Program-made: the position numbers and the translations under genes | DNA from: a virus | DNA length: 24,596 nt | Virus record (IMG/VR): IMGVR_UViG_3300043420_000050 | Coordinates: 1-24,596 of that record | Reading direction: 5' to 3' (one strand) | Shown here: positions 3,828 through 22,737 of the stretch, one piece after another | Position numbering within the stretch: the stretch's first letter is position 1 | How the letters are laid out: each line of letters starts with the position of its first letter | Notes under the pieces: model-generated | What the model was told of the DNA's origin: nothing | Seen by the model: the letters and a program-made list of their open reading frames with translations, nothing else | The model's database searches: none

Positions 3828-6117
3828 AGTCTTCCTCCTGAGTTTCTAAAATTTCATTTAATAAGTCTTCGATGCTTTGACGCTTCTCCTCTTCTTTTAC
3901 TTCATCTGTTTTACTGTCATAAGTGTTCTGGTAATATGAAGTTTTCCAACCATACTTGTATGTAGTTAAGAAGTCTTGTGCCATGACTGATGTAGGTACT
4001 TCATTATCTGGATAGTTCTCAGGATTATAACTCCAGTTACCAGAGATTGCCTGGTCAAAGAACTTTTGCATCACAGCAACAACATTAATATAACCACGAT
4101 TAGACTCCATCTCCCACAAAAGAGTGTAATTGTTTTTAAGAGATTGATATTGTGGAACAATCTGCTTAAGGGGACCCTTCTTCGATTTCTTAACGGACAA
4201 GTAATCTCTAGGTGGCTCGATTCCGTTTGTTTCGTTTGACACAACGGAACTGCTCTCCGAAGGCATTTGTGCGGACAGTGTGCTGTGTCTGAGACCGTGC
4301 TCCAAGATAGATGCTCTAAGAGTTTCCCAATCATAATTCAACTGGTTGGGGACGATCTCATCGACATCTCGCTTATAAGTGTCGATTGGGAGGATACCGT
4401 CTGAATACTTCGTTCGATCGAAATAACCACACTGCCCTTTCTCCTGGGCAATGGCGTTGCTTGACTTGAGCAGATAGAACTGGAAAGATTCAGTAAGTTC
4501 GTGGACGAGTTGCCATGCTCGTGGGTCATCGTAGTGTTCTCCTTGACGTGCTAAGTAGTGTGCTAAACCAATATAACCAATGCCAAGAGAACGACGGTTC
4601 TTTGTGCTTTCTTCTGCTGCTTTAATAGGATAGTTCTGATAATCAATCAGTTCTTCCAAACCACGAACAGCAAGATCACAAAGTTCTTCTAGTTCATCGA
4701 GGTGCTTCAATTTACCAACATTGATAGCAGAAAGAATACACAGAGCAATCTCACCATCACCATCAATGTGCTGAAGAGGATCTGTGGGGAGAGTAATCTC
4801 CTGACACAGATTAGACATATAAACTTTATCCTTGAAAGAAGAGTGTGAATTACAATGATCAATGTTCATAATATAAACACGACCAGTTTCTGCCCTTTCT
4901 TTCAGTAAATCAAGAATCAATTCCTGAGCGCCGATTCGCTTTTTAGGGATTGAATCGACTGATTCGTAATGGGTATACAGATCATCAAAGCTAGGAGTCC
5001 CGAAACTATCATAGAGCCCAGGTACATCATGGGGAGAAAATAGGGTGATCTCTCCATTCTGAATGAATCGTTCGTAGAAGAGTTTTGAGATTTGAATTGA
5101 GTAGTCAAGTTTTCGTACACGATTATCCTCCGTACCTTTATTATTTTTAAGAACTAGAATGTCTTCGATTTCTTGGTGCCAGATCGGGAAGTGTACAGTC
5201 GCTGATCCACCTCGGATGCCATTTTGTGTGCAACAACGGACAGTTGCTTCAAACTTTTTGAGGAAAGGGATAACACCTGTGTGCTGAACTTCTCCACCTC
5301 GGATCTTACTGTTGACGCCACGGATTCTACCTGCGTTGATACCGATGCCCGCCCTTTGTGCAACGTATCTGCCAATAGCCATATCACTAGTAAAGATACT
5401 ATCGAGGGTGTCATCGCTATCAACAAGGACACAGCTAGCAAATTGTCTAAGCGGTGTTCGAACCCCCGCCATGATTGGTGTTGGGATGTTGATCTTGTGC
5501 TTTGAGATGGCGTTGTAGTATCGTCTGACATAATCGAGCCTAGAAGTAAGAGGATAATCAGCGAAGAGGGTCAAAGCAATCATCATGTACATATATTGTG
5601 GAGTCTCATAGACTTCACCACTGCTTCGATCTTGCACGAGGTACTTATCAACGACCTGACGTAAACCCGCGTAAGTGAAGAGATAGTCACGATCATGATC
5701 AATCCAATTATTAACTTTAATCCAATCTTCATCACTATACTTATCTAAAATATCCTCATCGTACACTTTGTTTACCGTAGCATTGTACAGAGCTACATCA
5801 TATACGCTAGGCATACCCTCTTTCCACACATTCTTATGGAAGACTTGTTTACGAAGTCCGAACAAAAGAAGACGAGCAGCAACAAACTGATAGTTAGGAT
5901 TATCTAGATTAATAAGATCACTAGCCGAACGAATTAAAATCTCTTGAATATTTTCTGTGGTAATACCATCTTCAAATTGAATTCCAGAATTCATCTCTAC
6001 CTGAGAAGCAGAGACTCCAGAGAGACCGCTACATGCCTCTTCAACCATCTTGTGAACCTTATCAAGGTTGAGAGATTCGGTGGAACCATCTCGCTTTTGA
6101 ACTGTGATTGTGCTCAT
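3808..6117 (-). CDS. nrdA: Ribonucleotide reductase class Ia, alpha subunit
   Basis: NrdA reduces ribonucleoside diphosphates to deoxy forms in the cytoplasm. With the ATG at 6117 it has 769 residues. An ATP-cone-like allosteric domain occupies about residues 1-95. Catalytic residues are visible: C229 in FASCVLV, N436/C438/E440 in SNLCQEI and C460 in ALCILSAIN. The radical-transfer pair of tyrosines is in TSYYQNT (728/729), and the C-terminal redox pair is in CDSCKI (764/767), here CXXC where E. coli has a wider spacing. I choose ATG 6117 over 6129 because it makes an ATGA overlap with the primase stop, and the upstream ATGGAAGAAAG then serves as the ribosome site. nrdB overlaps its end by 20 bases. 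Confidence 0.96.
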   Translation of the reverse strand: MSTITVQKRDGSTESLNLDKVHKMVEEACSGLSGVSASQVEMNSGIQFEDGITTENIQEILIRSASDLINLDNPNYQFVAARLLLFGLRKQVFHKNVWKEGMPSVYDVALYNATVNKVYDEDILDKYSDEDWIKVNNWIDHDRDYLFTYAGLRQVVDKYLVQDRSSGEVYETPQYMYMMIALTLFADYPLTSRLDYVRRYYNAISKHKINIPTPIMAGVRTPLRQFASCVLVDSDDTLDSIFTSDMAIGRYVAQRAGIGINAGRIRGVNSKIRGGEVQHTGVIPFLKKFEATVRCCTQNGIRGGSATVHFPIWHQEIEDILVLKNNKGTEDNRVRKLDYSIQISKLFYERFIQNGEITLFSPHDVPGLYDSFGTPSFDDLYTHYESVDSIPKKRIGAQELILDLLKERAETGRVYIMNIDHCNSHSSFKDKVYMSNLCQEITLPTDPLQHIDGDGEIALCILSAINVGKLKHLDELEELCDLAVRGLEELIDYQNYPIKAAEESTKNRRSLGIGYIGLAHYLARQGEHYDDPRAWQLVHELTESFQFYLLKSSNAIAQEKGQCGYFDRTKYSDGILPIDTYKRDVDEIVPNQLNYDWETLRASILEHGLRHSTLSAQMPSESSSVVSNETNGIEPPRDYLSVKKSKKGPLKQIVPQYQSLKNNYTLLWEMESNRGYINVVAVMQKFFDQAISGNWSYNPENYPDNEVPTSVMAQDFLTTYKYGWKTSYYQNTYDSKTDEVKEEEKRQSIEDLLNEILETQEEDCDSCKI

Positions 6118-7112
6118 ACTTTCTTCCATTCGTTTAATTTTAGTTGTGCTTCTAATCCTTGATAGATGTTTGATTCTACCACACGTTGAACATCATGTCC
6201 AGCAAGAACCATGTCATTCAAATCTTTTTCTTTGATAGACTTAGGAAAGATAACTACCTTATGTCCCGACTTGGCCGCTTTAGCAATCTTAGATACGATT
6301 TCTCTGTTTCTCGGTTCATTGTCGAATACGAATACGAATCGATAATCATAACCGCTAAGGTCAACATCGCTACCACACATAGCGATAGAGTTATCAAGGA
6401 AAGTTGAGTCGAATGGTCCTTCTGTGACATATACTTCGTTACCTTCATCTACACGATCTAATCCAAATACTTTAGGTTTAGAATCATCTAGCATGATAGT
6501 AATGTATCTAATCTTAGCTTTAGGGGCGAGGGATCTTCCCTGATAACCAAACAGGGTTCCGTCTTTATCCCTCAGTGGGATTATAATTCTGGCACTATCT
6601 TGCCGAAGAGTATCAAATACCTTCTTTTGTTTGTTAGTCCAGTCTTTAAATTTGGGACAGTAATAGAAGTAATCTAGGTCTTTAATTTTTCTCTGCTCAA
6701 GATACTCTCGGGCGGGGTGTGATATATTTAGTTCCGAGATCTTTTTCAAGTCTACAGAATTTTCAGGTTTGCTGAAAAACTGTGGTTCCTGAAAATTAAA
6801 CTTAGGGTCTGGAGTTTGAGATCCTTTACCAGTGAGTCCTTCCTTATATCTCTCCATGACATACTGATCATGAAGCATCGGACTTTGATCTTTTAAAAAG
6901 TTAGTAAAAGTCCTCCCAACACCACAGTTATGGCATTTAAACACAAAGTCATTCTTCATCTTGAAGAAGTATCCTCTTGCTTTGTTCTGATACTTCTTAG
7001 AATCTCCACAATAAGGACAACGGAAATTGTAAGTAGAAGCATTCTTCCGAACAAACTTTCCGAGTTGTGGAGAGACAAGTTGTATGTACTTTACATCAAT
7101 AAAAGAACTCAC
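6114..7112 (-). CDS. 61: DNA primase, T4 gp61-like
   Basis: Gp61 makes the RNA primers for lagging-strand synthesis and works with the gp41 helicase at the fork. In this 332-residue protein a CPYCG (C32, C35) and KCHNCG (C60, C63) pair forms the N-terminal zinc-binding domain. A TOPRIM-type core follows, with VTEGPFDS (E231) and FVFDNEP (D264, E266) as the probable metal-binding acids. The length is close to T4 gp61 (about 340). The start overlaps the stop of the upstream coiled-coil gene as ATGA, and the end overlaps nrdA in the same way, so primase and RNR are co-translated. The gp41 helicase lies about 8.5 kb upstream in the transcription direction. Confidence 0.92.
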   Translation of the reverse strand: MSSFIDVKYIQLVSPQLGKFVRKNASTYNFRCPYCGDSKKYQNKARGYFFKMKNDFVFKCHNCGVGRTFTNFLKDQSPMLHDQYVMERYKEGLTGKGSQTPDPKFNFQEPQFFSKPENSVDLKKISELNISHPAREYLEQRKIKDLDYFYYCPKFKDWTNKQKKVFDTLRQDSARIIIPLRDKDGTLFGYQGRSLAPKAKIRYITIMLDDSKPKVFGLDRVDEGNEVYVTEGPFDSTFLDNSIAMCGSDVDLSGYDYRFVFVFDNEPRNREIVSKIAKAAKSGHKVVIFPKSIKEKDLNDMVLAGHDVQRVVESNIYQGLEAQLKLNEWKKV

Positions 7113-7537
7113 TTGGGTTGGGCGTACTGACTACCTCCCATAGTAGCAGCTGCCTGCCCGACTGTCAAGAGATTACCAAAGAACGTAGCGGATCCGATAA
7201 CGATCACAGCAGCGGTGCCGATGCCTGTAGCGATCCAGCGAAAGGTAGCAAGGTCATTTACTCTTCCTTCAATCCTTTCAATCCTTTCAATTACTGCTTT
7301 GTGTTCTTTTGTATTTGCTGTCTTTACATCTTCCAGCATTTTAATAATAAGTTGGTCATTCTTATCGCTTTCATTCAAGCGATTTTCATGGCGTTCTAGG
7401 ATTACAGCAACTCTGTTACTGTTCTCACTAATTGTAGCAACTGCTCGCTCAAGCTTATCGAGCATTTCTTTTGACAAGTCTTCATAGATATCGAGTTTGC
7501 TTTCAAGGACCGCTAACTTCTGAAGTCCGAACGCCAT
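7109..7537 (-). CDS. Coiled-coil protein with one C-terminal membrane span
   Basis: The product has 142 residues. Residues 10-95 are a long heptad-like coiled coil rich in Glu, Lys, Ile and Leu, including the short repeat ERIERIEGR. Residues about 100-127 form one hydrophobic span (WIATGIGTAAVIVIGSATFFG), followed by a short polar tail. This layout resembles XhlA-type or other phage coiled-coil/anchor proteins that sit on the inner membrane, sometimes linked to lysis, but no signature proves this. The gene ends in an ATGA overlap with primase. Function remains open: membrane tethering, superinfection exclusion and lysis accessory are all compatible. Confidence 0.75.
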   Translation of the reverse strand: MAFGLQKLAVLESKLDIYEDLSKEMLDKLERAVATISENSNRVAVILERHENRLNESDKNDQLIIKMLEDVKTANTKEHKAVIERIERIEGRVNDLATFRWIATGIGTAAVIVIGSATFFGNLLTVGQAAATMGGSQYAQPK

Positions 7538-8609: not shown

Positions 8610-9293
8610 TCAGGCAGTAACAGTTAGAACTGCTGCGTCAGAAATAACTTCCTCAGCACCAGCATCAGATGTTAGTTTGACACGATACTCATGAGCATCA
8701 AGTCCAGTAACATCAGAAATTACTAGGGTATCAGTATTGAAGTCGCTGTAGACTCCACCATCTAGAGTGCCACTAACGTTAGTCCAACGACCAGCAGCAC
8801 TGGTTCTACGCTGCCAGATGTAAAGAACGGTTCCAGTTGGGGCAGCAGCGGCAGTGACGGAGAATGCTCCTGGATCACCAGCAGCAACTGTGTCATCAGC
8901 AGGTTGTACAGAGATGCTGATAGCGGATGCTACGTCAGCGGCAACAGCATCATCAGTATCAGCAGTGTTGGCAGGAGCATCCTTCATTGATACAAGATGT
9001 ACTGCCTTGTGGCGAGTAGCACCAGAAGCATCAGTATATGAGGTATACTGCCACCAACCAGGAGCGGTTAGTCCACGCTCTCTGTTCTCGGCAAGAGTTG
9101 CTTCAACTTCGTCAATGAAAATTGATCTTGCTTGGATAGCAGCATTACCCTCAGCACCAGCGGTGGCATTAGTATTGCCATCATGTGCTACGAGAGTTCC
9201 ATCAGATTCGTACTTCTTGACGGAAGACTTCTCAGTTGTGTTTAGAACTTTAATTGATTGTGCTTGCGTTTCAGCACGACTGTACAAAGCCAT
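8610..9293 (-). CDS. Probable virion surface protein with a C-terminal Ig-like domain
   Basis: The product has 227 residues and low charge, with Ala, Thr, Asp, Gly and Val abundant. Residues 1-120 are a structural-looking domain with APGWWQYTSYTDASGATRHK. From about residue 130 an Ig-like domain follows: QPADDTVAAGDPGAFSV, then TVLYIWQRR with the core Trp, and near the end DAHEYRVKLTSDAG with the typical D-X-X-X-Y-X-V pattern. Ig-like domains decorate tailed-phage capsids and tails and may bind cell-surface sugars weakly. The gene has a T4-type late promoter box 39 bases upstream and a terminator before that, consistent with a late structural gene. Which virion part it belongs to cannot be read from the sequence. 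Confidence 0.8.
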   Translation of the reverse strand: MALYSRAETQAQSIKVLNTTEKSSVKKYESDGTLVAHDGNTNATAGAEGNAAIQARSIFIDEVEATLAENRERGLTAPGWWQYTSYTDASGATRHKAVHLVSMKDAPANTADTDDAVAADVASAISISVQPADDTVAAGDPGAFSVTAAAAPTGTVLYIWQRRTSAAGRWTNVSGTLDGGVYSDFNTDTLVISDVTGLDAHEYRVKLTSDAGAEEVISDAAVLTVTA

Positions 9294-10571: not shown

Positions 10572-10818
10572 TATTTGTAAAGATACTACTTTTCCTTTCT
10601 TTATTTATAGTCTCTTGAACTTCACGTATATCAGTAACCCAAGCACGAAACATAATACCAGCTTCAGTAATAGCAATAACATAATTAGGACCCGATCGAT
10701 GTACTCTTCCTTTTTCTCCAGTATTGACATTCATCACCAGATCTCCTGGTTGATACACTTCCTTCAATCGAAAGCGTTGTTGATCTGCTGTCTTCTTTAA
10801 ATCTTTAAAATTTCTCAT
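10546..10818 (-). CDS. Small protein with an SH3/KOW-like beta domain, 90 aa
   Basis: A basic helix at residues 1-20 (MRNFKDLKKTADQQRFRLKE) is followed by PGDLVMNVNTGEKGRVHRSG, then YVIAITEAGIMFRAWVTDI. The GD(L/V)V...TG..G.V pattern and short strands suggest a KOW or SH3-like small barrel of the kind that binds nucleic acid or protein, but this is inferred from pattern only. The last 20 residues are polar. The start overlaps the stop of the 590-aa gene as ATGA, so it is coupled to it. Its 3' end holds the late promoter box for the following gene. Confidence 0.7.
   Translation of the reverse strand: MRNFKDLKKTADQQRFRLKEVYQPGDLVMNVNTGEKGRVHRSGPNYVIAITEAGIMFRAWVTDIREVQETINKERKSSIFTNNGKAETND
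10602..10609 (-). promoter_or_regulatory. T4-type late promoter box TATAAATA
   Basis: The minus strand carries an exact TATAAATA, 31 bases upstream of the Cys/EF-hand-like gene start at 10571, inside the end of the 90-aa gene. The exact match, the spacing and the second identical box at 9332-9339 make a functional late promoter likely. Confidence 0.6.
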
Positions 10819-12587
10819 ACACCCATACCCAGAGCATCTTGCATATTATTAGCATAATTTTTAGTTCTCAATTTAATCCACTGCTTATACTGCCCAAAAT
10901 TTCTGGTGCTAACAAAATCATAATACAATCTCATTTCATTATTAATTTCTTTTTGTTTTGTTATAGAGTATAACACACTTTCTTTCAATAGGACTTGTTC
11001 ATAAAATAACTTGTAAAAATTTATTTGAGTTGCTCCAGTTTCATATGAAGTTTGAACAAGAACTCGTTCACATAACAAAGCGACATTATTCAAAGCAAAT
11101 GGATATTTTTTATTCGGACTTCTTTTAACCGCTTCTTCTTCTGTTAAAGAAATACATTCCTTAACTTTTTTGGTTTTACTCTCTTCTTTAAAAAGATTGT
11201 CTGCTATAAAATTTTTTGTTTTCAAAAGCAAACCAGGATCCGATATAAGATTATCCAAAGGTTCAAAATTTTTATTGATGCTGGTAATTTTTTTATCCAA
11301 AATTGTCAATACTTGATTCCATTCATTAACCGACATTGACGAAGTATTCAGCACTTGTTTGAAGTCACTAGTAACTTGTGATTTCTTAGATCCAGCTAAT
11401 AGTTTTCTCAATCCTCTTATAGGATACAGAGTTCCTTTACTACTATATTTGTTATACTCCATAGCAGAAGAAGCTATCATTCTCTGCCCAATCTGAGAAG
11501 ACCTAGCATTTGATGCTATACTTTTAAACCACTTATGTACTTCTGCTTCTCCACCAGGAAATGCTGTCTGGAATTTAACTGTTGCTGTAGAAGATCCTCT
11601 CATCTGTGATTTAACACTAATCTTCAACGGAGTATTTCTATTACCATTAACAGCAATTTTATAATCAATCAATGCTTCGTTAGCTGCTTCTGGCAAATAA
11701 ATTTCAACCTTAGTAATCCTTTCTTCTTCTGGCCACCCAACAACATCTTTTATAATCTTATTGTTAGAAGACAAAAGTTTAGATATTTTTAGAACAGAAA
11801 GAACTTCAAAAAATTCTGACGACATATCTGGTGCCACACCAAGTTTATCATCTAAAGTATTATTATTCCATGAGTTAGAAACCGCCTCAACATAACTCTC
11901 TCTAAGATAGTTACTAGTAAAAATACTGTTAGAATCTGGATGATTAATAAAAGATATAACATTATTATAAAATTGCTGAGGACTTAACCACACATCAGTA
12001 ATTTTTGGACTAACGTCTTTTGGTTTTAATGAAGATAGCTTACCACTACTTTCCGCTTTACCAGCATACTTCAATGAAAAATTGTAATTGATTCCAGTTT
12101 TTTTAGTTACAATGTTACCCTTCTTATCTAAAACTTTATAAGCATAAAATGATTTAATAACTAAAGTTGGGTTTTTGCCACCAGCTAATGTGTGTAACTT
12201 GATCTCTGTTATATTTAATTTATTTTTGATACTTTTAGAATTAACGAAGGAGATCATATCCTGAATGAATGACGCTCTAGGAGTTCTAAAGTTCAAAGCA
12301 GAATATTTTTGATTTCCATTATCACATGTCATCTTGTAATTATATGTGATGGAACTCTTTCCTTTGATAACCGCTTCAATCTCGGTTAGAGTTCCGTCTT
12401 CGTCTACATCCTTACTACCACCCTCTATAATAAAATCAAAACCATTCGTTTCATTGTATTGTTTATTAAAAGCATATCCAGCAGCAACATGAACGAGTCT
12501 CAGCATCCTTCTAATTCTTGTTGCTGGAATATCAATATCAATATAGTTGTCAATGTTTCTTTGTTCTTTTCGTAAGTCAAATGCCAT
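10815..12587 (-). CDS. Large unknown protein, 590 aa, coupled to the ligase/nucleotidyltransferase fusion
   Basis: I do not recognise this protein. It begins MAFDLRKEQRNIDNYIDIDI, with a mixed alpha/beta N-terminal half in which two segments follow a similar beta-rich plan (TEIEAVIKGKSSITYNYKM near residue 80, and DYKIAVNGNRNTPLKISVKS near residue 320). The second contains an acid followed by a strand ending in I-S-V-K-S, which resembles the (D/E)XK region of restriction-type nucleases. This is weak. The C-terminal 200 residues are helical and Lys-rich. Its codon choice looks more AT-rich than gp41 or nrdA, suggesting separate acquisition. The start shares a base with the upstream fusion gene stop (TAATG), so the two proteins are likely partners; the next gene overlaps as ATGA. 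Confidence 0.85.
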   Translation of the reverse strand: MAFDLRKEQRNIDNYIDIDIPATRIRRMLRLVHVAAGYAFNKQYNETNGFDFIIEGGSKDVDEDGTLTEIEAVIKGKSSITYNYKMTCDNGNQKYSALNFRTPRASFIQDMISFVNSKSIKNKLNITEIKLHTLAGGKNPTLVIKSFYAYKVLDKKGNIVTKKTGINYNFSLKYAGKAESSGKLSSLKPKDVSPKITDVWLSPQQFYNNVISFINHPDSNSIFTSNYLRESYVEAVSNSWNNNTLDDKLGVAPDMSSEFFEVLSVLKISKLLSSNNKIIKDVVGWPEEERITKVEIYLPEAANEALIDYKIAVNGNRNTPLKISVKSQMRGSSTATVKFQTAFPGGEAEVHKWFKSIASNARSSQIGQRMIASSAMEYNKYSSKGTLYPIRGLRKLLAGSKKSQVTSDFKQVLNTSSMSVNEWNQVLTILDKKITSINKNFEPLDNLISDPGLLLKTKNFIADNLFKEESKTKKVKECISLTEEEAVKRSPNKKYPFALNNVALLCERVLVQTSYETGATQINFYKLFYEQVLLKESVLYSITKQKEINNEMRLYYDFVSTRNFGQYKQWIKLRTKNYANNMQDALGMGV

Positions 12588-14389: not shown

Positions 14390-14437
14390 TTAGCAGCACC
14401 ACAGAGGACCGTGAGTAGCAGTGGACAGTTTGAAAAG

Positions 14438-14522
14438 CGGAAGGGGTGGGATTCGAACCCACGGATGCTTTCACATCGCTAGTTTTCAAGACTAGAGCCT
14501 TAAACCACTCGACCACCCTTCC
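14438..14522 (-). tRNA. tRNA-Ser (anticodon TGA)
   Basis: The 85-nt cloverleaf can be drawn on the minus strand. The acceptor stem GGAAGGG pairs with CCCTTCC, with discriminator G. The D arm contains GTCGAGTGGTTTAAGGC. The anticodon stem CTAGT/ACTAG holds the loop CTTGAAA with anticodon TGA. A long variable arm (CGATGTGAAAGCATCCG), typical of class II serine tRNAs, and a T arm with GGTTCGAATCC follow. The 3' CCA is not encoded. It starts 2 bases after the stop of the oxygenase gene, so it is probably cut out of the mRNA. It would read UCA and related Ser codons, used often in an AT-leaning phage. Confidence 0.95.
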
Positions 14523-14524
14523 AA

Positions 14525-15199
14525 TTAAAATGAGTTGACTTGCTGTACCTTAGATCTGGGTAAAGGAGGTTTACAAGAACTTCTAAGTTTATATATGAAA
14601 AACACTAAGGTAAGTCTAGGTTCTTCACCAACAATAAAATTAGATTCTTTGTGAAACTCCATTCCAGAATAACAAATCAACCGATTATATACATTCTTAA
14701 CATCAATAGTTTTTTCAAATTGTTCGTGAAATTTTTCTTTAACGTCAAGATAGTAATCAACATCTACAGGCTCATTAGCATATAAAAGATCTCTTGTATC
14801 AGATAGATCACGTATTGTTCTTTCTTTTACTTGCCTGTATATTGAAGTGCCAGCATCAGGATTTGAATTCTTATTCAAGTAGACTAGTCCAGCAAGAGGA
14901 ACTTTCAAATCTTGATGAACCCAACCAGTATTTATTTCGGGTGGTCCTTCATATGGATATATTTTTTGGAAATGTAATGCCATCTCACATTCGACATAGC
15001 AGTTTTCTCCAAAAAATAATCCAAGAATCTTCCTAACAAATTGATCGTAAAACGACGGATTAATATTACGAAGATAGTCAGTTCTAACGCCAGGGTAGTT
15101 ACCAGATATTTTAGAGTATTCCAAAGAGAGTCCGTATTCACGGACTTCATCTGGATTCTCAAAGAAATCATCTACAACTGATGCTGGAATAAACTTCAT
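14525..15199 (-). CDS. Probable 2-oxoglutarate/Fe(II)-dependent oxygenase (DUF6445-like)
   Basis: The product has 224 residues. The middle part contains the facial-triad pattern: TGWVHQD gives H95 and D97, EFHKES gives H183, and EEPRLTLVFF gives R195, placed 12 residues after the second His, where these enzymes bind 2-oxoglutarate. Between them lie PLAGLVYLN and DAGTSIYR, typical of the double-stranded beta-helix. I recall this layout from the DUF6445 group, in which members occur near flavin-dependent tryptophan halogenases in some bacterial clusters; I have not checked this. A halogenase homologue lies two genes upstream. The substrate is unknown. The start overlaps the mazG stop as TAATG, and the tRNA follows at once. 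Confidence 0.75.
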   Translation of the reverse strand: MKFIPASVVDDFFENPDEVREYGLSLEYSKISGNYPGVRTDYLRNINPSFYDQFVRKILGLFFGENCYVECEMALHFQKIYPYEGPPEINTGWVHQDLKVPLAGLVYLNKNSNPDAGTSIYRQVKERTIRDLSDTRDLLYANEPVDVDYYLDVKEKFHEQFEKTIDVKNVYNRLICYSGMEFHKESNFIVGEEPRLTLVFFIYKLRSSCKPPLPRSKVQQVNSF

Positions 15200-15603
15200 T
15201 AGAGATCATCTTCTGCTCGGTTCTCGGAGTAGTAAATATCAAAGCTTCCACCTGGATACCTCTTCTCAAGTTTCTTGACATTACGTTCAAGAACTTCTTC
15301 AAAAGAAACCCCCAATGCTTGAGTTGCTTGAGCTACGTACCAAAGGAGATCGCCCAACTCAATAATAAGATGTTCTCGGTTGTCGTCGTTCCAAGGTTTA
15401 CCTTGGAAGACCATCTTCTTAACGATCTCAAGGAACTCACCACCCTCAGCATTAATGCCAACACCAGCAGTAATAAGTCGCTCAATATTGGCACCTTTTC
15501 CATCAAGTTCAACAAGACGGTCAGCAAGGGCAACAAAATCTTTAGAAGCGTCACTAGTGACAGCATCTACGAATTCCTCATAACGATTGAAATTAATAGT
15601 CAT
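15199..15603 (-). CDS. mazG: MazG nucleotide pyrophosphohydrolase
   Basis: MazG hydrolyses (d)NTPs or related nucleotides to monophosphates. Cyanophage MazG has been linked first to (p)ppGpp control and later to dNTP (dGTP/dCTP) hydrolysis for reuse of host DNA. The 134 residues show the two metal-binding pairs: EFLE (E56, E59) and ELGD (E82, D85), the latter in HLIIELGDLLWYVAQA. The C-terminal helix FEEVLERNVKKLEKRYPGG also fits the family. The length is typical of the short single-domain form. It starts 2 bases after gp41 and shares a base with the next gene, so it belongs to the replication operon. Confidence 0.92.
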   Translation of the reverse strand: MTINFNRYEEFVDAVTSDASKDFVALADRLVELDGKGANIERLITAGVGINAEGGEFLEIVKKMVFQGKPWNDDNREHLIIELGDLLWYVAQATQALGVSFEEVLERNVKKLEKRYPGGSFDIYYSENRAEDDL

Positions 15604-15605
15604 AT

Positions 15606-16997
15606 TTAGATAACGAATTTAGAAAATTTATCTAGGCGAGATTGTTTAGAAGAAACATCTTCAAACGTTTCGAACGTGTCTTCATCTTCAGTATTGAGGA
15701 TGTTGTCTCCGTCCGAATCCTCAACATTATACAGCTTCATCTTTGCTCTGTCAATACCCACTGTAAAACGTCGGAAGTAAGTGGGATCGTTGTATCGATT
15801 CTTAAGTTGTTTAACCATAATCCTACCAGACTGTTCAAGTTCCTCAGTGGAAATGAGAGCAAACATAAAATCTGCTGTGGCAGGAAGACCAAAGGATTCA
15901 GAAGTGTCGGTGAGATCAACGTCACTATTACCAAAACCAGACCTAGTAGTTTGAGTTGCTGATACAACTGGTACGTCATTCTCAACAGCAAGACCCCTGA
16001 GTTCCTCTGCAATTGCTTTAACATACGTATAACTGTTTACGATGTGTCCTTTATATCTGGACGAAGCACAGATATTTAGATAATCGATGAAGATAATATC
16101 TGGTTTGAAATATTTCTTCAGTGACAATTCATTGAGAAGTCCTTTGAAATGACCAGCGTGGGCAGAGGCGGTAGGATACTCTTTGATAATCAAACGACCT
16201 TGAGTTTTCCTACCGATCTCAGCAACTCTAGAAGTAAATATCTGCTCAGGAATAGAACCAATATCTTTGATATTAACGTTGAGAAGGTTGGCATCAATAC
16301 GCTCAGCAATCTTCTCCTCTGCCATCTCCATAGTGATGTAGAGAACGTTCTTACCCTGAGACAAACATGCTGCTGCCATATGACACATAAACAGAGACTT
16401 ACCAACACCAGTGCCAGCAAGAGCAATGTTCAGTGTTTTATTAGGCAGACCACCTTTTGTTACAGTATTGAACTTATCAATATCAAAAGGAATTTTAGAT
16501 TCATCCTGGTGATAATAATCATAACGTTCGCCAGCATTCTCAACATAATCGTGACCTACATGTTCGTCGAACGATACTGCCAGGGCCTCTTGTAGGATTG
16601 CTGGGATAGCGTCCTTCGATACCTGTTGATTGCCTCCGTCCGCAATCTTGATTGATTCGAGTAGAGCGAGATAGATTGCCCTGTCCTTACACCACTTCTC
16701 CGTTGTGTCAAGCAACCAGTTATATTCAACTGCCGTGTCCTCAAACGACTTGAGCGTTTGAACAGCAGATTGATAAGATTCTTCAGTAATATCCTTCCTA
16801 TTTTGAAGGTCGATAATGATAACTTCCGAAGTAGGTACAGTGTCGTAATTGCTGGCAAAGTTCCAGACTTCTTCGTAGATAATTCTTTCATGATAGTCTT
16901 CAAAATATTCAGGTTTTACAAACGGTACTACCTTTCGATAAAAGTCTTCATTGAAGAGAAGATTCCTGAGAATAGTTGATTCAATTTTTTCCGTCAT
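15606..16997 (-). CDS. 41: Replicative DNA helicase, T4 gp41/DnaB-like
   Basis: Gp41 is the hexameric 5'-3' helicase that opens the fork and binds the gp61 primase. The 463 residues contain an N-terminal helical domain (1-150), a linker and the RecA-like motor. Walker A is GTGVGKS at 195-201 (ALAGTGVGKSLFMCH), and Walker B is IIFIDYLN at 301-308. A conserved TQTTRSGF stretch follows, then a basic motif KNRYNDPTYFRRF. The C-terminal tail is acidic (DSDGDNILNTEDEDTFETF). The length matches T4 gp41 (475). The start lies 17 bases inside the end of the halogenase-like gene, so it is coupled to it. Confidence 0.95.
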   Translation of the reverse strand: MTEKIESTILRNLLFNEDFYRKVVPFVKPEYFEDYHERIIYEEVWNFASNYDTVPTSEVIIIDLQNRKDITEESYQSAVQTLKSFEDTAVEYNWLLDTTEKWCKDRAIYLALLESIKIADGGNQQVSKDAIPAILQEALAVSFDEHVGHDYVENAGERYDYYHQDESKIPFDIDKFNTVTKGGLPNKTLNIALAGTGVGKSLFMCHMAAACLSQGKNVLYITMEMAEEKIAERIDANLLNVNIKDIGSIPEQIFTSRVAEIGRKTQGRLIIKEYPTASAHAGHFKGLLNELSLKKYFKPDIIFIDYLNICASSRYKGHIVNSYTYVKAIAEELRGLAVENDVPVVSATQTTRSGFGNSDVDLTDTSESFGLPATADFMFALISTEELEQSGRIMVKQLKNRYNDPTYFRRFTVGIDRAKMKLYNVEDSDGDNILNTEDEDTFETFEDVSSKQSRLDKFSKFVI

Positions 16998-18117
16998 TCA
17001 TTACTCCTTCGTACCAATTTTTAAAGCTCCAGAATGACCACTGCCCATAACTATGTTGAGTAAATAAAGGATGCCTAATTTGATCACAAGAACTAATCTT
17101 TGATTGTTCTAAAAACTTATCAAAAATTTCATCTTCTACATAAAGTTTTTTACAGTAATTCCAAAAAGGTGTATTATATTTTGATCCATTCTGATAATGC
17201 CACAATATAAATCTTTCCAGATTTTTAATGTAAACTCTCATCATGTCTTCAGCTTTCTCAAGCGAAATTTTATTAGCAACGATAGCTTGAAAAGACAGCG
17301 TTGCCCATTGTTGATATGCTCCTATAGAAGTAGATTCCAACGGTTCTAAGAAAAACATTTTATTGCCATTGAATAAAATATTACCTTTATAAAAATTGTT
17401 AGTGACATAATTTTTAAAAGAAAATTTTGATGTAACTTCGACATCAAACATTTCTAGCATGTTTTTCTCTGCTGCATCTGGATTGGTCTTTTTATTATTA
17501 TACAAATAACCAACAGAATATGGGTATGAAGTAGAATCTTCTAGAGTAGGGATAATAAAGCACCACCCATCTGGAGTTGCTACACATCTAGTCCACGGTT
17601 TTGTAAATACTTCTTTTGGTTTTCCAAGAATAACCGAATTAAGTGGATTAACTAAGTCAGTATATCCAGAGTAATCAGATGGTTTACCAGTACAATCAAA
17701 AACATAATCGGAATCTATCTCAGATACCTTTACATTCTCCTGCTCTCTTACTTTAAAATACCCAGAGTTTAAAATTACAGATCTAGTTTCTTTTGGAGAC
17801 AAGTGTAAAGCATGGGTGTCTAAAGGAAAATCGTGGAAAATTGTTTCAGACTTCCCCCAGTTCTCATACAAAATACCTTCTTTGGGAATAGCTTTGATCT
17901 CATTAGTATACCAATTTGTTCCCAAGGTTTGCCACAAAAGTCTAGGTTGAGATGGTATAGTTGCTTGACCAACTAATTCATGTTTCTTATTTGGATCATG
18001 AATCATCTCAACTTCGACGCCATAGGATTTCCCATGATAAGCATAATATAAAGCGGTAATACACCCAGCGTTTCCAGATCCAACGACTGTTATTTTTTTA
18101 TTCGTCGTCAGTGCCAT
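16981..18117 (-). CDS. Short flavin-dependent tryptophan halogenase homologue (PrnA-like)
   Basis: The 378-residue protein has the FAD-binding loop GSGNAG (13-18) and GQATIPSQ (50-57, usually G-E-A-T-X-P). K79 aligns with the catalytic Lys79 of PrnA. E261 lies in FLEPLEST and aligns with the catalytic Glu. Departures are notable: the WXWXIP signature reads GWCFIIP (184-190), and the residue after EST is Ser (ESTS) instead of the Gly that helps bind chloride. It is also about 130-150 residues shorter than classical tryptophan halogenases. It could halogenate an indole, or work as a related monooxygenase. It starts 20 bases inside uvsX and ends 17 bases inside gp41. Its codon use is AT-rich compared with both, pointing to insertion of a foreign gene into the operon. 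Confidence 0.8.
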
Positions 18118-19120
18118 AGAGAAATTCCTTTTGTGCTTGTTTATCTAGTTGCTCCAGAACTTCTGGAGTAAAGTAAGTCTCTGGTTCTTTGAGGATCTGC
18201 TTAGCATAGATCTTCTTGCCATCGATTTCATATCGACCAGCAACGTTCTTCCACATCCCTGCTCGCTCACCTAATTCTAGCAGACCGTAGTATCGCTCCA
18301 GTCCCCTAGCATCGAAGAACAACCGTGTCTCGACCTTAGATCCCTCACGAGTCAGACGGGACTTCTTCGCCTCACATTTAATAATGTTTCCGACCAGATC
18401 GGTTCCGTCTTTCTCTTTCTTTTTAGAAAGGAAAACGATGGTAGAAGCGGAATACTTGAGACCAACTCCCCCTCCCATTTCTTTAGTTGGGACATAAGCT
18501 CCGATAACATCATAGGTGTGATTAGTAACCAACATTGGAATGTTAGCCTTACCAAGCTTAAGTGTCAACACTCGGAAAGCACCCTTAATAAGTTGTGATT
18601 TCGTCATGTCACGAACTTGCTTGTCATTAGAAATGTCTTCCATTTCCTTAGAAGAAGATAACATTCCCAAAGAGTCTAACACAAACATCAATGGTTGACG
18701 TTCATCTTTAGGTTGTTCTAAGTATTTGTCCACAATACGGATCGCCTGAGTTCTGAACTCCTCAATGGTATCCACAGGCATAATAATCATACGTTGAGAA
18801 TCGATGCCACGACTCTCAATCATGTCCTTAGAAATAGCAGACTCCGTTTCAAAATAAATGACTCCAGCGTTGGGATCACTATCAAGGAAAGAACGAACAA
18901 CAGAAAGACAAAAGAAAGTTTTGCCTGTGCCGCTTTCCCCTGCCAAAGCTGTAATCTTGTTCGAAGGGAATCCACCAAAAATAGATCCACTAACAAGGGC
19001 GTTAACCATATAACTACCAGTGTCAATGAAAGATTCAATATCACCAGCAGCGATCCCATCGCTAACAAAGCTAGCGTATTCATTTTTGCTGTCTTTAATT
19101 ACAGTATCTAGAAAATTCAT
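18098..19120 (-). CDS. uvsX: UvsX, RecA-like recombinase
   Basis: UvsX forms filaments on single-stranded DNA and drives strand exchange and recombination-dependent replication in T4-like phages. The 340-residue protein has Walker A GESGTGKT (61-68) within [20 protein letters not shown], and Walker [11 protein letters not shown] (143-152). A probable DNA-binding loop lies around [19 protein letters not shown], and an L2-like region near [12 protein letters not shown]. The acidic C-terminal end (LYGTDDE) also fits RecA relatives. The length is close to T4 UvsX (391) minus part of the C-terminus, as usual in cyanophages. It follows gp43 by 1 base and is overlapped by the halogenase-like gene. 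Confidence 0.95.
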
Positions 19121-22698: not shown

Positions 22699-22704
22699 AT
22701 TATA
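22699..22704 (-). promoter_or_regulatory. Promoter -10 box TATAAT
   Basis: A perfect TATAAT stands 2 bases after the T-run of the hsp20 terminator on the minus strand. Seventeen bases upstream is TTGTGG, a weak -35, which falls in the loop and stem of that terminator. This promoter would start the operon of the Sm-like genes, gp43, uvsX and gp41. Confidence 0.65.
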
Positions 22705-22706
22705 GC

Positions 22707-22737
22707 AAAAAAATACGTGACCCACAAGGGGTCACGT
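22707..22737 (-). terminator. Rho-independent terminator after hsp20
   Basis: The stem ACGTGACCC/GGGTCACGT (22715-22737) has a 5-base loop and is followed on the minus strand by A and seven T. It lies 19 bases after the hsp20 stop. The hairpin also overlaps the likely -35 of the next promoter. Confidence 0.9.

What the first reader, a model, noticed from the sequence alone, without database searches (positions are those of the whole stretch)
14525..18117. Possible two-enzyme oxidative modification pair (halogenase-like + 2OG oxygenase-like) flanking gp41-mazG
Two redox enzymes of accessory type lie in one operon. From memory, DUF6445-like proteins also neighbour tryptophan halogenases in bacterial clusters. 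If that link is real, the phage has carried a pair that may act on a common substrate, such as tryptophan in a peptide or a pigment-related indole, during infection. The placement around helicase and MazG would put it under the replication-phase promoter at 22699-22704.
Basis: inference. Interest (0 to 1): 0.75.

Follow-up and report, generated by a model that had tools for sequence, protein, structure and literature searches.

The report
Phage halogenase and hydroxylase-like gene pair
A marine cyanobacterial virus carries, in its DNA-replication genes, a compact halogen-adding enzyme and an oxygen-adding enzyme whose families are true partners in bacteria but were dropped into this virus at two separate sites; related viruses line up such enzymes beside their tail-fibre genes, which suggests, without proof, that they chemically modify virus or host proteins.

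Summary
A flavin-dependent halogenase (FDH; 16981-18117, minus) lies between uvsX and gp41, and a DUF6445 protein (14525-15199, minus) between mazG and tRNA-Ser, in a T4-like cyanophage fragment. Sequence motifs and predicted folds support an FDH with its catalytic Lys and Glu, and a prolyl-hydroxylase-type 2OG-Fe(II) oxygenase. The phage pairing is not a recurrent unit: none of 80 viral loci with this short FDH type has DUF6445 within 8 kb, the nearest relatives lack both genes, and they occupy two different cargo slots. DUF6445 also follows a conserved promoter embedded in gp41. A broader pattern was found: full-length cyanophage FDHs, including VirX1, sit in arrays with 2OG oxygenases, often beside tail-fibre genes (27 oxygenase hits within 3 kb, 9.2 expected, p = 0.0004; p = 0.002 in an unbiased subset). 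Best reading: two accessory protein-modifying enzymes acquired as cargo. A shared substrate is possible but unproven.

The parts
16981..18117 (-). short flavin-dependent (tryptophan-type) halogenase, 378 aa, between uvsX and gp41
   Evidence: PF04820 2.9e-33; phrog_2928 8e-67; GxGxxG, K79, H95xF97, E258-P-L-E261-S-T and GWxFxIP; model pLDDT 87, Z 34.9 to SttH
14525..15199 (-). DUF6445 protein, P4H-type 2OG-Fe(II) oxygenase by motif and predicted fold, 224 aa, between mazG and tRNA-Ser
   Evidence: PF20043 2.1e-11; H95xD97...H183...R195 conserved; model pLDDT 86, Z 13.4 to P. putida P4H
15606..16997 (-). gp41 replicative helicase, separates the two enzyme genes
   Evidence: DnaB_C 1.2e-17
15199..15603 (-). 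MazG pyrophosphohydrolase
   Evidence: PF03819 4.6e-11, phrog_229
18098..19120 (-). uvsX; its last codons overlap the start of the halogenase gene
   Evidence: RecA 3.8e-12; junction
14437..14522 (-). tRNA-Ser(UGA), conserved downstream of mazG in relatives; marks the DUF6445 insertion slot
15726..15754 (-). perfect TTGACA-17-TATAAT promoter embedded in the 3' coding end of gp41, upstream of mazG and DUF6445
   Evidence: conserved in 47/122 gp41 loci and by codon choice in 32/32 loci with the peptide motif
22699..22704 (-).
   Evidence: sequence

Best explanation
The two genes are separate accessory cargo in the replication module of a T4-like cyanophage. One is a compact flavin-dependent halogenase, inserted cleanly between uvsX and gp41. 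The other is a DUF6445 protein, a prolyl-hydroxylase-like 2OG-Fe(II) oxygenase, inserted between mazG and tRNA-Ser. Expected chemistry from family knowledge: the FDH uses host-supplied FADH2, O2 and halide to make a hypohalous species that Lys79 delivers to an aromatic side chain; DUF6445 uses Fe(II), O2 and 2-oxoglutarate to hydroxylate a residue. I infer that both act on proteins (virion, tail-fibre or host surface proteins) rather than on free tryptophan or a pigment. Reasons: FDHs and 2OG/cupin/DUF6445 oxygenases recur together next to tail-fibre genes in cyanophages and next to TonB receptors in bacteria, the DUF6445 fold is that of protein prolyl hydroxylases, and the short FDH lacks a segment present in full-length FDHs, which may leave a more open substrate site. 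Shown: gene identities, motifs, predicted folds, insertion sites, bacterial linkage, phage arrays. Inferred: activity, protein substrate, any shared target.
For: Identity and motifs. Folds: FDH Z 34.9 to SttH, 30.2 to the lanthipeptide halogenase MibH, 26.9 to VirX1; DUF6445 Z 13.4 to P. putida P4H, then OGFOD1, PHD2 and the viral collagen hydroxylase vCPH. Insertion: nearest relatives (gp43 88-89%, gp41 91%) lack both genes, and their uvsX and gp41 overlap directly. The uvsX^gp41 slot holds a 2OG oxygenase in P-RSM4, Syn33 and S-CAM9 and a DNA methyltransferase-like ORF in L119 and L122; the mazG slot holds a 2OG-like ORF in L106. Both genes are AT-rich (GC 0.33) next to GC 0.38-0.43 neighbours. 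Bacterial linkage and fusion. Phage arrays of full-length FDH, 2OG oxygenases and tail-fibre genes, clustering p=0.0004 and 0.002 in genomes chosen from the FDH list alone.
Against: The array association holds for full-length FDHs, not for the short type in this window (1 oxygenase within 3 kb of 6 loci, 2.5 expected). Short FDHs recur after gp23 or in the nrdB region with no fixed partner. No substrate, flavin reductase or activity was shown. Gene adjacency is not proof of a protein substrate. Other genes of the window are as AT-rich (10815-12587 GC 0.31), so composition does not prove transfer.
Confidence: 0.5

Rival explanations
1. A dedicated two-enzyme pair: the phage took both genes from a bacterial-type FDH-DUF6445 system, and they act in sequence on one substrate, as adjacency and fusion suggest for bacteria.
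For: Bacterial adjacency and fusion; both genes absent in the closest relatives and of equal low GC; they lie 1.8 kb apart.
Against: The FDH belongs to a phage clade found in hundreds of viral contigs, 0/80 with DUF6445 within 8 kb and 1/28 contigs with one. The slots differ, an internal promoter lies between them, and the nearest homologues of the two genes lie in different contigs.
Confidence: 0.2
2. Host-metabolism genes: the FDH halogenates free tryptophan or an indole (protection or signalling) and the oxygenase modulates 2-oxoglutarate or nitrogen metabolism.
For: Published suggestions: PrnA as antibiotic protection (PMC2984593, PMC9964418), 2OG oxygenases and 2OG levels (PMC3037559).
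Against: No biosynthetic genes nearby; a segment after HxF and part of the C-terminus are missing. VirX1 has an open active site and broad substrate scope (PMC8407142).
Confidence: 0.2
3. The two genes are neutral or transient cargo in insertion hotspots, without a function selected in this phage.
For: Slots with rapid turnover of cargo; restricted to this fragment among the relatives examined.
Against: Both reading frames are intact with catalytic residues conserved; the same FDH clade is kept in many viruses.
Confidence: 0.1

Closest known systems
VirX1 (cyanophage Syn10/syn9 gp42, PDB 6QGM) and PrnA/RebH-type flavin-dependent halogenases
   Same: Same fold (Z 26.9 to VirX1, up to 34.9 to SttH), GxGxxG, catalytic Lys79 and Glu, HxF
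   Different: 378 aa instead of about 480-530; lacks the segment after HxF and much of the C-terminus; GWxFxIP instead of GWxWxIP; about 20% identity to syn9 FDHs
Short 'tryptophan halogenases' of S-RIM14/S-ShM2, S-SSM5, S-RIM4, Sf-CH8, AG-345-E15 and uncultured marine viruses
   Same: Same length class and clade, 41-53% identity to the nearest
   Different: Placed after gp23, nrdB, talC or next to tail fibres; none seen between uvsX and gp41
Bacterial TonB receptor - FDH - SapC - Cupin_8 - FDH - DUF6445 clusters (e.g. Ferrimonas marina)
   Same: Contains FDH and DUF6445 as adjacent, sometimes fused partners
   Different: Full-length FDHs; SapC, Cupin_8 and TonB receptor absent from the window
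Prolyl 4-hydroxylases (P. putida P4H, PHD2, OGFOD1, vCPH)
   Same: Double-stranded beta-helix model, HxD...H iron triad and 2OG-binding Arg
   Different: 10-15% identity; substrate unknown

Membership tests
Flavin-dependent tryptophan-type halogenase (PF04820) | Dinucleotide-binding GxGxxG and family HMM | tested here: met
   115.8 bits vs cut-off 21; G13, G15, G18 conserved
Flavin-dependent tryptophan-type halogenase (PF04820) | Catalytic Lys79 and active-site Glu (PrnA E346) with Ser/Thr | tested here: met
   K79 invariant in the alignment, E261-S262-T263 present
Flavin-dependent tryptophan-type halogenase (PF04820) | WxWxIP motif | tested here: not met
   Window has W185-C-F-I-I-P190: first W and IP kept, second W is F. 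The claim is limited to a divergent short clade of the family.
Flavin-dependent tryptophan-type halogenase (PF04820) | Tryptophan as substrate | not testable with these tools
   Segments of full-length FDHs are missing in the alignment; needs an assay
DUF6445 (PF20043) | Score above the curated cut-off | tested here: met
   44.6 bits vs 24
2OG-Fe(II) oxygenase superfamily | HxD...H iron triad and Arg for 2-oxoglutarate | tested here: met
   H95, D97, H183, R195 invariant in A5, invariant or near-invariant in A1
2OG-Fe(II) oxygenase superfamily | Double-stranded beta-helix fold | tested here: met
   Predicted model only; Z 12-13.4 to prolyl hydroxylases
Prolyl 4-hydroxylase subfamily | Hydroxylation of proline in protein | not testable with these tools
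   Fold similarity only
FDH-DUF6445 partnership as a unit | Adjacency or co-occurrence in bacteria | tested here: met
   30/46 vs 4/114 genomes; 17/30 within 1.5 kb; fusion
FDH-DUF6445 partnership as a unit | Adjacency or co-occurrence of the window's FDH type with DUF6445 in phages | tested here: not met
   0/80 loci within 8 kb; 1/28 contigs
TonB-FDH-SapC-Cupin_8-DUF6445 cluster | SapC, Cupin_8 and TonB receptor genes nearby | tested here: not met
   No such Pfam match among the window ORFs scanned; the record is a 24.6-kb fragment

The most novel reading that the evidence does not exclude
Cyanophages run a protein-modification line in which flavin-dependent halogenases and a set of 2OG/JmjC/DUF6445 oxygenases halogenate and hydroxylate their own tail fibres (or a host surface protein); the window phage carries two such enzymes moved into its replication operon. 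This would give VirX1 a candidate natural substrate.
Probability: 0.25. Interest if true: 0.85.

Novelty: new variant of a known kind. Interest (0 to 1): 0.5.

Why it matters
Phage halogenases have been catalogued for years as tryptophan halogenases with a guessed antibiotic role, and VirX1 is a studied biocatalyst whose natural substrate I found stated nowhere in the papers read. The association of full-length FDHs with oxygenase arrays, often beside tail-fibre genes, points to a concrete test: look for halogenated and hydroxylated residues in virions of cultured phages. The FDH-DUF6445 adjacency and fusion in bacteria, with the P4H-like fold of DUF6445, gives an uncharacterised Pfam family a likely function and partner. 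Separately, a conserved promoter inside gp41 may explain why mazG responds differently from its upstream genes.

Tried and rejected
Conserved pair in phages: rejected for the short FDH type. Genome-level co-occurrence among isolates: inconclusive, p=0.053 in a spread sample and p=1 in a second, partly hit-selected set. The PHROG label 'minor coat protein' for DUF6445 (phrog_1644) was set aside because motif and fold give an oxygenase. The sequence search of PDB with DUF6445 gave nothing meaningful. The class sample alone gives p=0.013, and p=0.13 without its centre genome. Long frames of 494-596 aa around some bacterial DUF6445 genes looked like fusions, but the translated text suggests read-through of GC-rich sequence; only L389 was confirmed by Pfam. 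A split primase at 6114-7537 was considered and dropped: Pfam shows the upstream ORF is a separate coiled-coil protein, DUF7201. Some handle lists for the genome search exceeded size limits and were split.
Full report
What is there. The window is a whole 24,596-base IMG/VR record, a fragment of a T4-like cyanophage; its DNA polymerase is 77% identical to those of S-CAM3 and Sf-FR1. The halogenase (16981-18117) and the DUF6445 gene (14525-15199) are on the minus strand, separated by gp41 and mazG. A tRNA-Ser(UGA) follows DUF6445.

The halogenase. It matches PF04820 at E=2.9e-33 and phrog_2928 at 8e-67. It keeps GxGxxG, Lys79, His-x-Phe, Glu-Ser-Thr and a GWxFxIP version of WxWxIP. The AlphaFold model (pLDDT 87) aligns with tryptophan halogenases at Z up to 34.9, with the lanthipeptide halogenase MibH at 30.2 and VirX1 at 26.9. 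It is 378 aa long and lacks a segment after HxF and much of the C-terminus that full-length FDHs have. Such short FDHs are common: a scan returned 348 viral stretches, the best 80 at 43-53% identity. In a FastTree they form one clade with weak support (0.57), the window sequence grouping with the uncultured set and S-RIM14 (0.99), and all phage FDHs group with one deltaproteobacterial MAG sequence (0.96).

The DUF6445 protein. The alignment shows H95-x-D97, H183 and R195, the iron triad and 2-oxoglutarate arginine of 2OG-Fe(II) oxygenases. The model (pLDDT 86) matches prolyl hydroxylases: P. putida P4H Z 13.4, OGFOD1 13.3, PHD2 13.3, vCPH 12.1. The PHROG label 'minor coat protein' is therefore doubtful.

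How they got there. Of 128 viral loci where both uvsX and gp41 could be placed, 101 have a gap of under 100 bases or an overlap, and 20 have a gap of 500-600. Three isolates with an insert (P-RSM4, Syn33, S-CAM9) carry a 2OG oxygenase there. L119 and L122 have a methyltransferase-like ORF in that slot, and L123 has a full-length FDH between gp41 and mazG. The closest relatives (L024, L036, L104; gp43 88-89%, gp41 91%) have neither FDH nor DUF6445, with uvsX and gp41 overlapping directly. In the window, the first residues of the FDH are read out of frame from the end of uvsX and its last residues from the start of gp41. The tRNA-Ser downstream of mazG is conserved in relatives, so DUF6445 occupies the gap between mazG and that tRNA. 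Both genes have GC 0.33 against 0.38-0.43 for their neighbours, but some other genes of the window are as low.

Bacterial link. I fetched 80 bacterial FDH loci. Of 46 non-actinobacterial genomes among them, 30 encode DUF6445 over the cut-off, against 4 of 114 genomes in a class sample and none of 14 controls. Of the 30 DUF6445 loci fetched, 17 have an FDH within 1.5 kb. One is a fusion: Paucibacter L389 reads PF04820 (1e-173) and PF20043 (1e-60) in one frame. Ferrimonas L271 has TonB receptor, FDH, SapC, Cupin_8, FDH, DUF6445 in a row; Pseudoalteromonas L264 has TonB receptor, two FDHs, DUF6445 and SapC. The sample is FDH-selected, and the class sample alone is small (p=0.013; 0.13 without its centre).

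Phage link. For the window's FDH type there is no pairing: none of 80 short-FDH loci has DUF6445 within 8 kb and one of 28 contigs has one. Short FDHs recur after gp23 and in the nrdB region (these neighbour names are my reading of the sequences, helped by the annotated Sf-CH8 locus). For full-length FDHs the picture differs. In syn9, S-RIM44, S-CREM1, Sf-FP1, Sf-CH11, S-WAM1, P-TIM40, P-RSM6, S-SZBM1 and Sf-FR1 one or two FDHs are followed or flanked by several 2OG, JmjC/cupin or DUF6445 oxygenase genes, with tail-fibre, tail-fibre-assembly, collagen-like or large structural genes on one side. S-SRM01 has an FDH among tail-fibre genes without oxygenases. S-H35, S-MbCM6, S-PM2 and S-SSM7 do not show the full pattern. 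A circular-shift test gives 27 oxygenase hits within 3 kb of 20 long-FDH loci against 9.2 expected (p=0.0004) and 1 against 2.5 for six short loci. Restricted to genomes chosen from the FDH list alone, it is 17 against 5.0 (p=0.002). Oxygenase coordinates were typed from result lists of which the last two were cut at about 150 rows, and the genomes are related, so these are guides and not exact probabilities. The tail-fibre adjacency was counted from annotations and not tested statistically. syn9 gp42 matches VirX1 over its whole length (1-530, 1271 bits).

Regulation. A perfect TTGACA-17-TATAAT lies at 15754-15726 inside gp41. It is present in 47 of 122 gp41 loci at a similar place. All 32 non-identical loci with the peptide motif use the four codons that keep it, against 1.9 expected from their own codon use (relatedness inflates this). 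mazG and DUF6445 thus probably have their own start in addition to read-through. In S-PM2d, mazG is induced more than gp41 under low phosphate (1.33 against 0.67 in the table; PMC10976474), which would fit.

Literature. Halogenase genes in cyanophages are known (PMC3037559, PMC2984593; 20 of 153 genomes in PMC10452541), with lengths of 1104-1593 bases already listed in 2010. Suggested roles are antibiotic protection and 2-oxoglutarate metabolism. PMC8407142 describes VirX1 as an open-site, broad-substrate iodinating FDH. I found no paper in the library on DUF6445 or on the FDH-oxygenase arrays; the library lacks most subscription papers.

Verdict. Observation confirmed; interpretation partly supported. 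The families are partners in bacteria and full-length phage FDHs keep company with oxygenases, but this phage's pair is most likely two separate cargo insertions. A protein substrate is my preferred reading, unproven.

Noticed in passing
15726-15754 (-): Perfect sigma70 promoter embedded in the gp41 coding sequence, conserved by codon choice in 32/32 gp41 genes with the peptide motif (1.9 expected). Probably drives mazG and whatever cargo follows it.
   Followed up: yes
syn9 32454-42605 (L189); S-CREM1 56135-64780 (L191); S-RIM44 104156-112590 (L190): Arrays of full-length FDH plus several 2OG/JmjC/DUF6445 oxygenases next to tail-fibre or structural genes; VirX1 is a member.
   Followed up: partly
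L389 1-2190: FDH-DUF6445 fusion protein in Paucibacter sp. B2R-40.
   Followed up: yes
L004/L344 (IMGVR 3300030333_003696): Two short FDH genes in tandem (L004 4913-6001 and 5998-7092) between structural (DUF4815) and Mtd-N-like tail genes.
   Followed up: partly
L123 4036-5487: A full-length FDH inserted between gp41 and mazG in another phage, i.e. in a neighbouring slot of the same module.
   Followed up: partly
NC_006820 121316-122701: S-PM2 halogenase is unannotated in the record and the HMM match reads through one in-frame TAA stop; it may be a broken gene.
   Followed up: no
L207 9992-11584: A phage-type FDH on what looks like a genuine bacterial contig of a deltaproteobacterial MAG; 39% identical to VirX1 and nested among phage FDHs in the tree.
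   Followed up: partly
22715-22737 (-): Terminator-like hairpin with T-run directly before the TATAAT at 22704-22699, and a CTAAATA motif just upstream that resembles cyanophage late promoters.
   Followed up: no
phrog_1644 and phrog_274: PHROG names 'minor coat protein' and 'DNA endonuclease V' are attached to proteins that look like 2OG oxygenases, and the same names appear in RefSeq phage annotations.
   Followed up: partly
8610-9293 (-): phrog_613 head protein with a weak Ig-like domain match at its C-terminal part.
   Followed up: no
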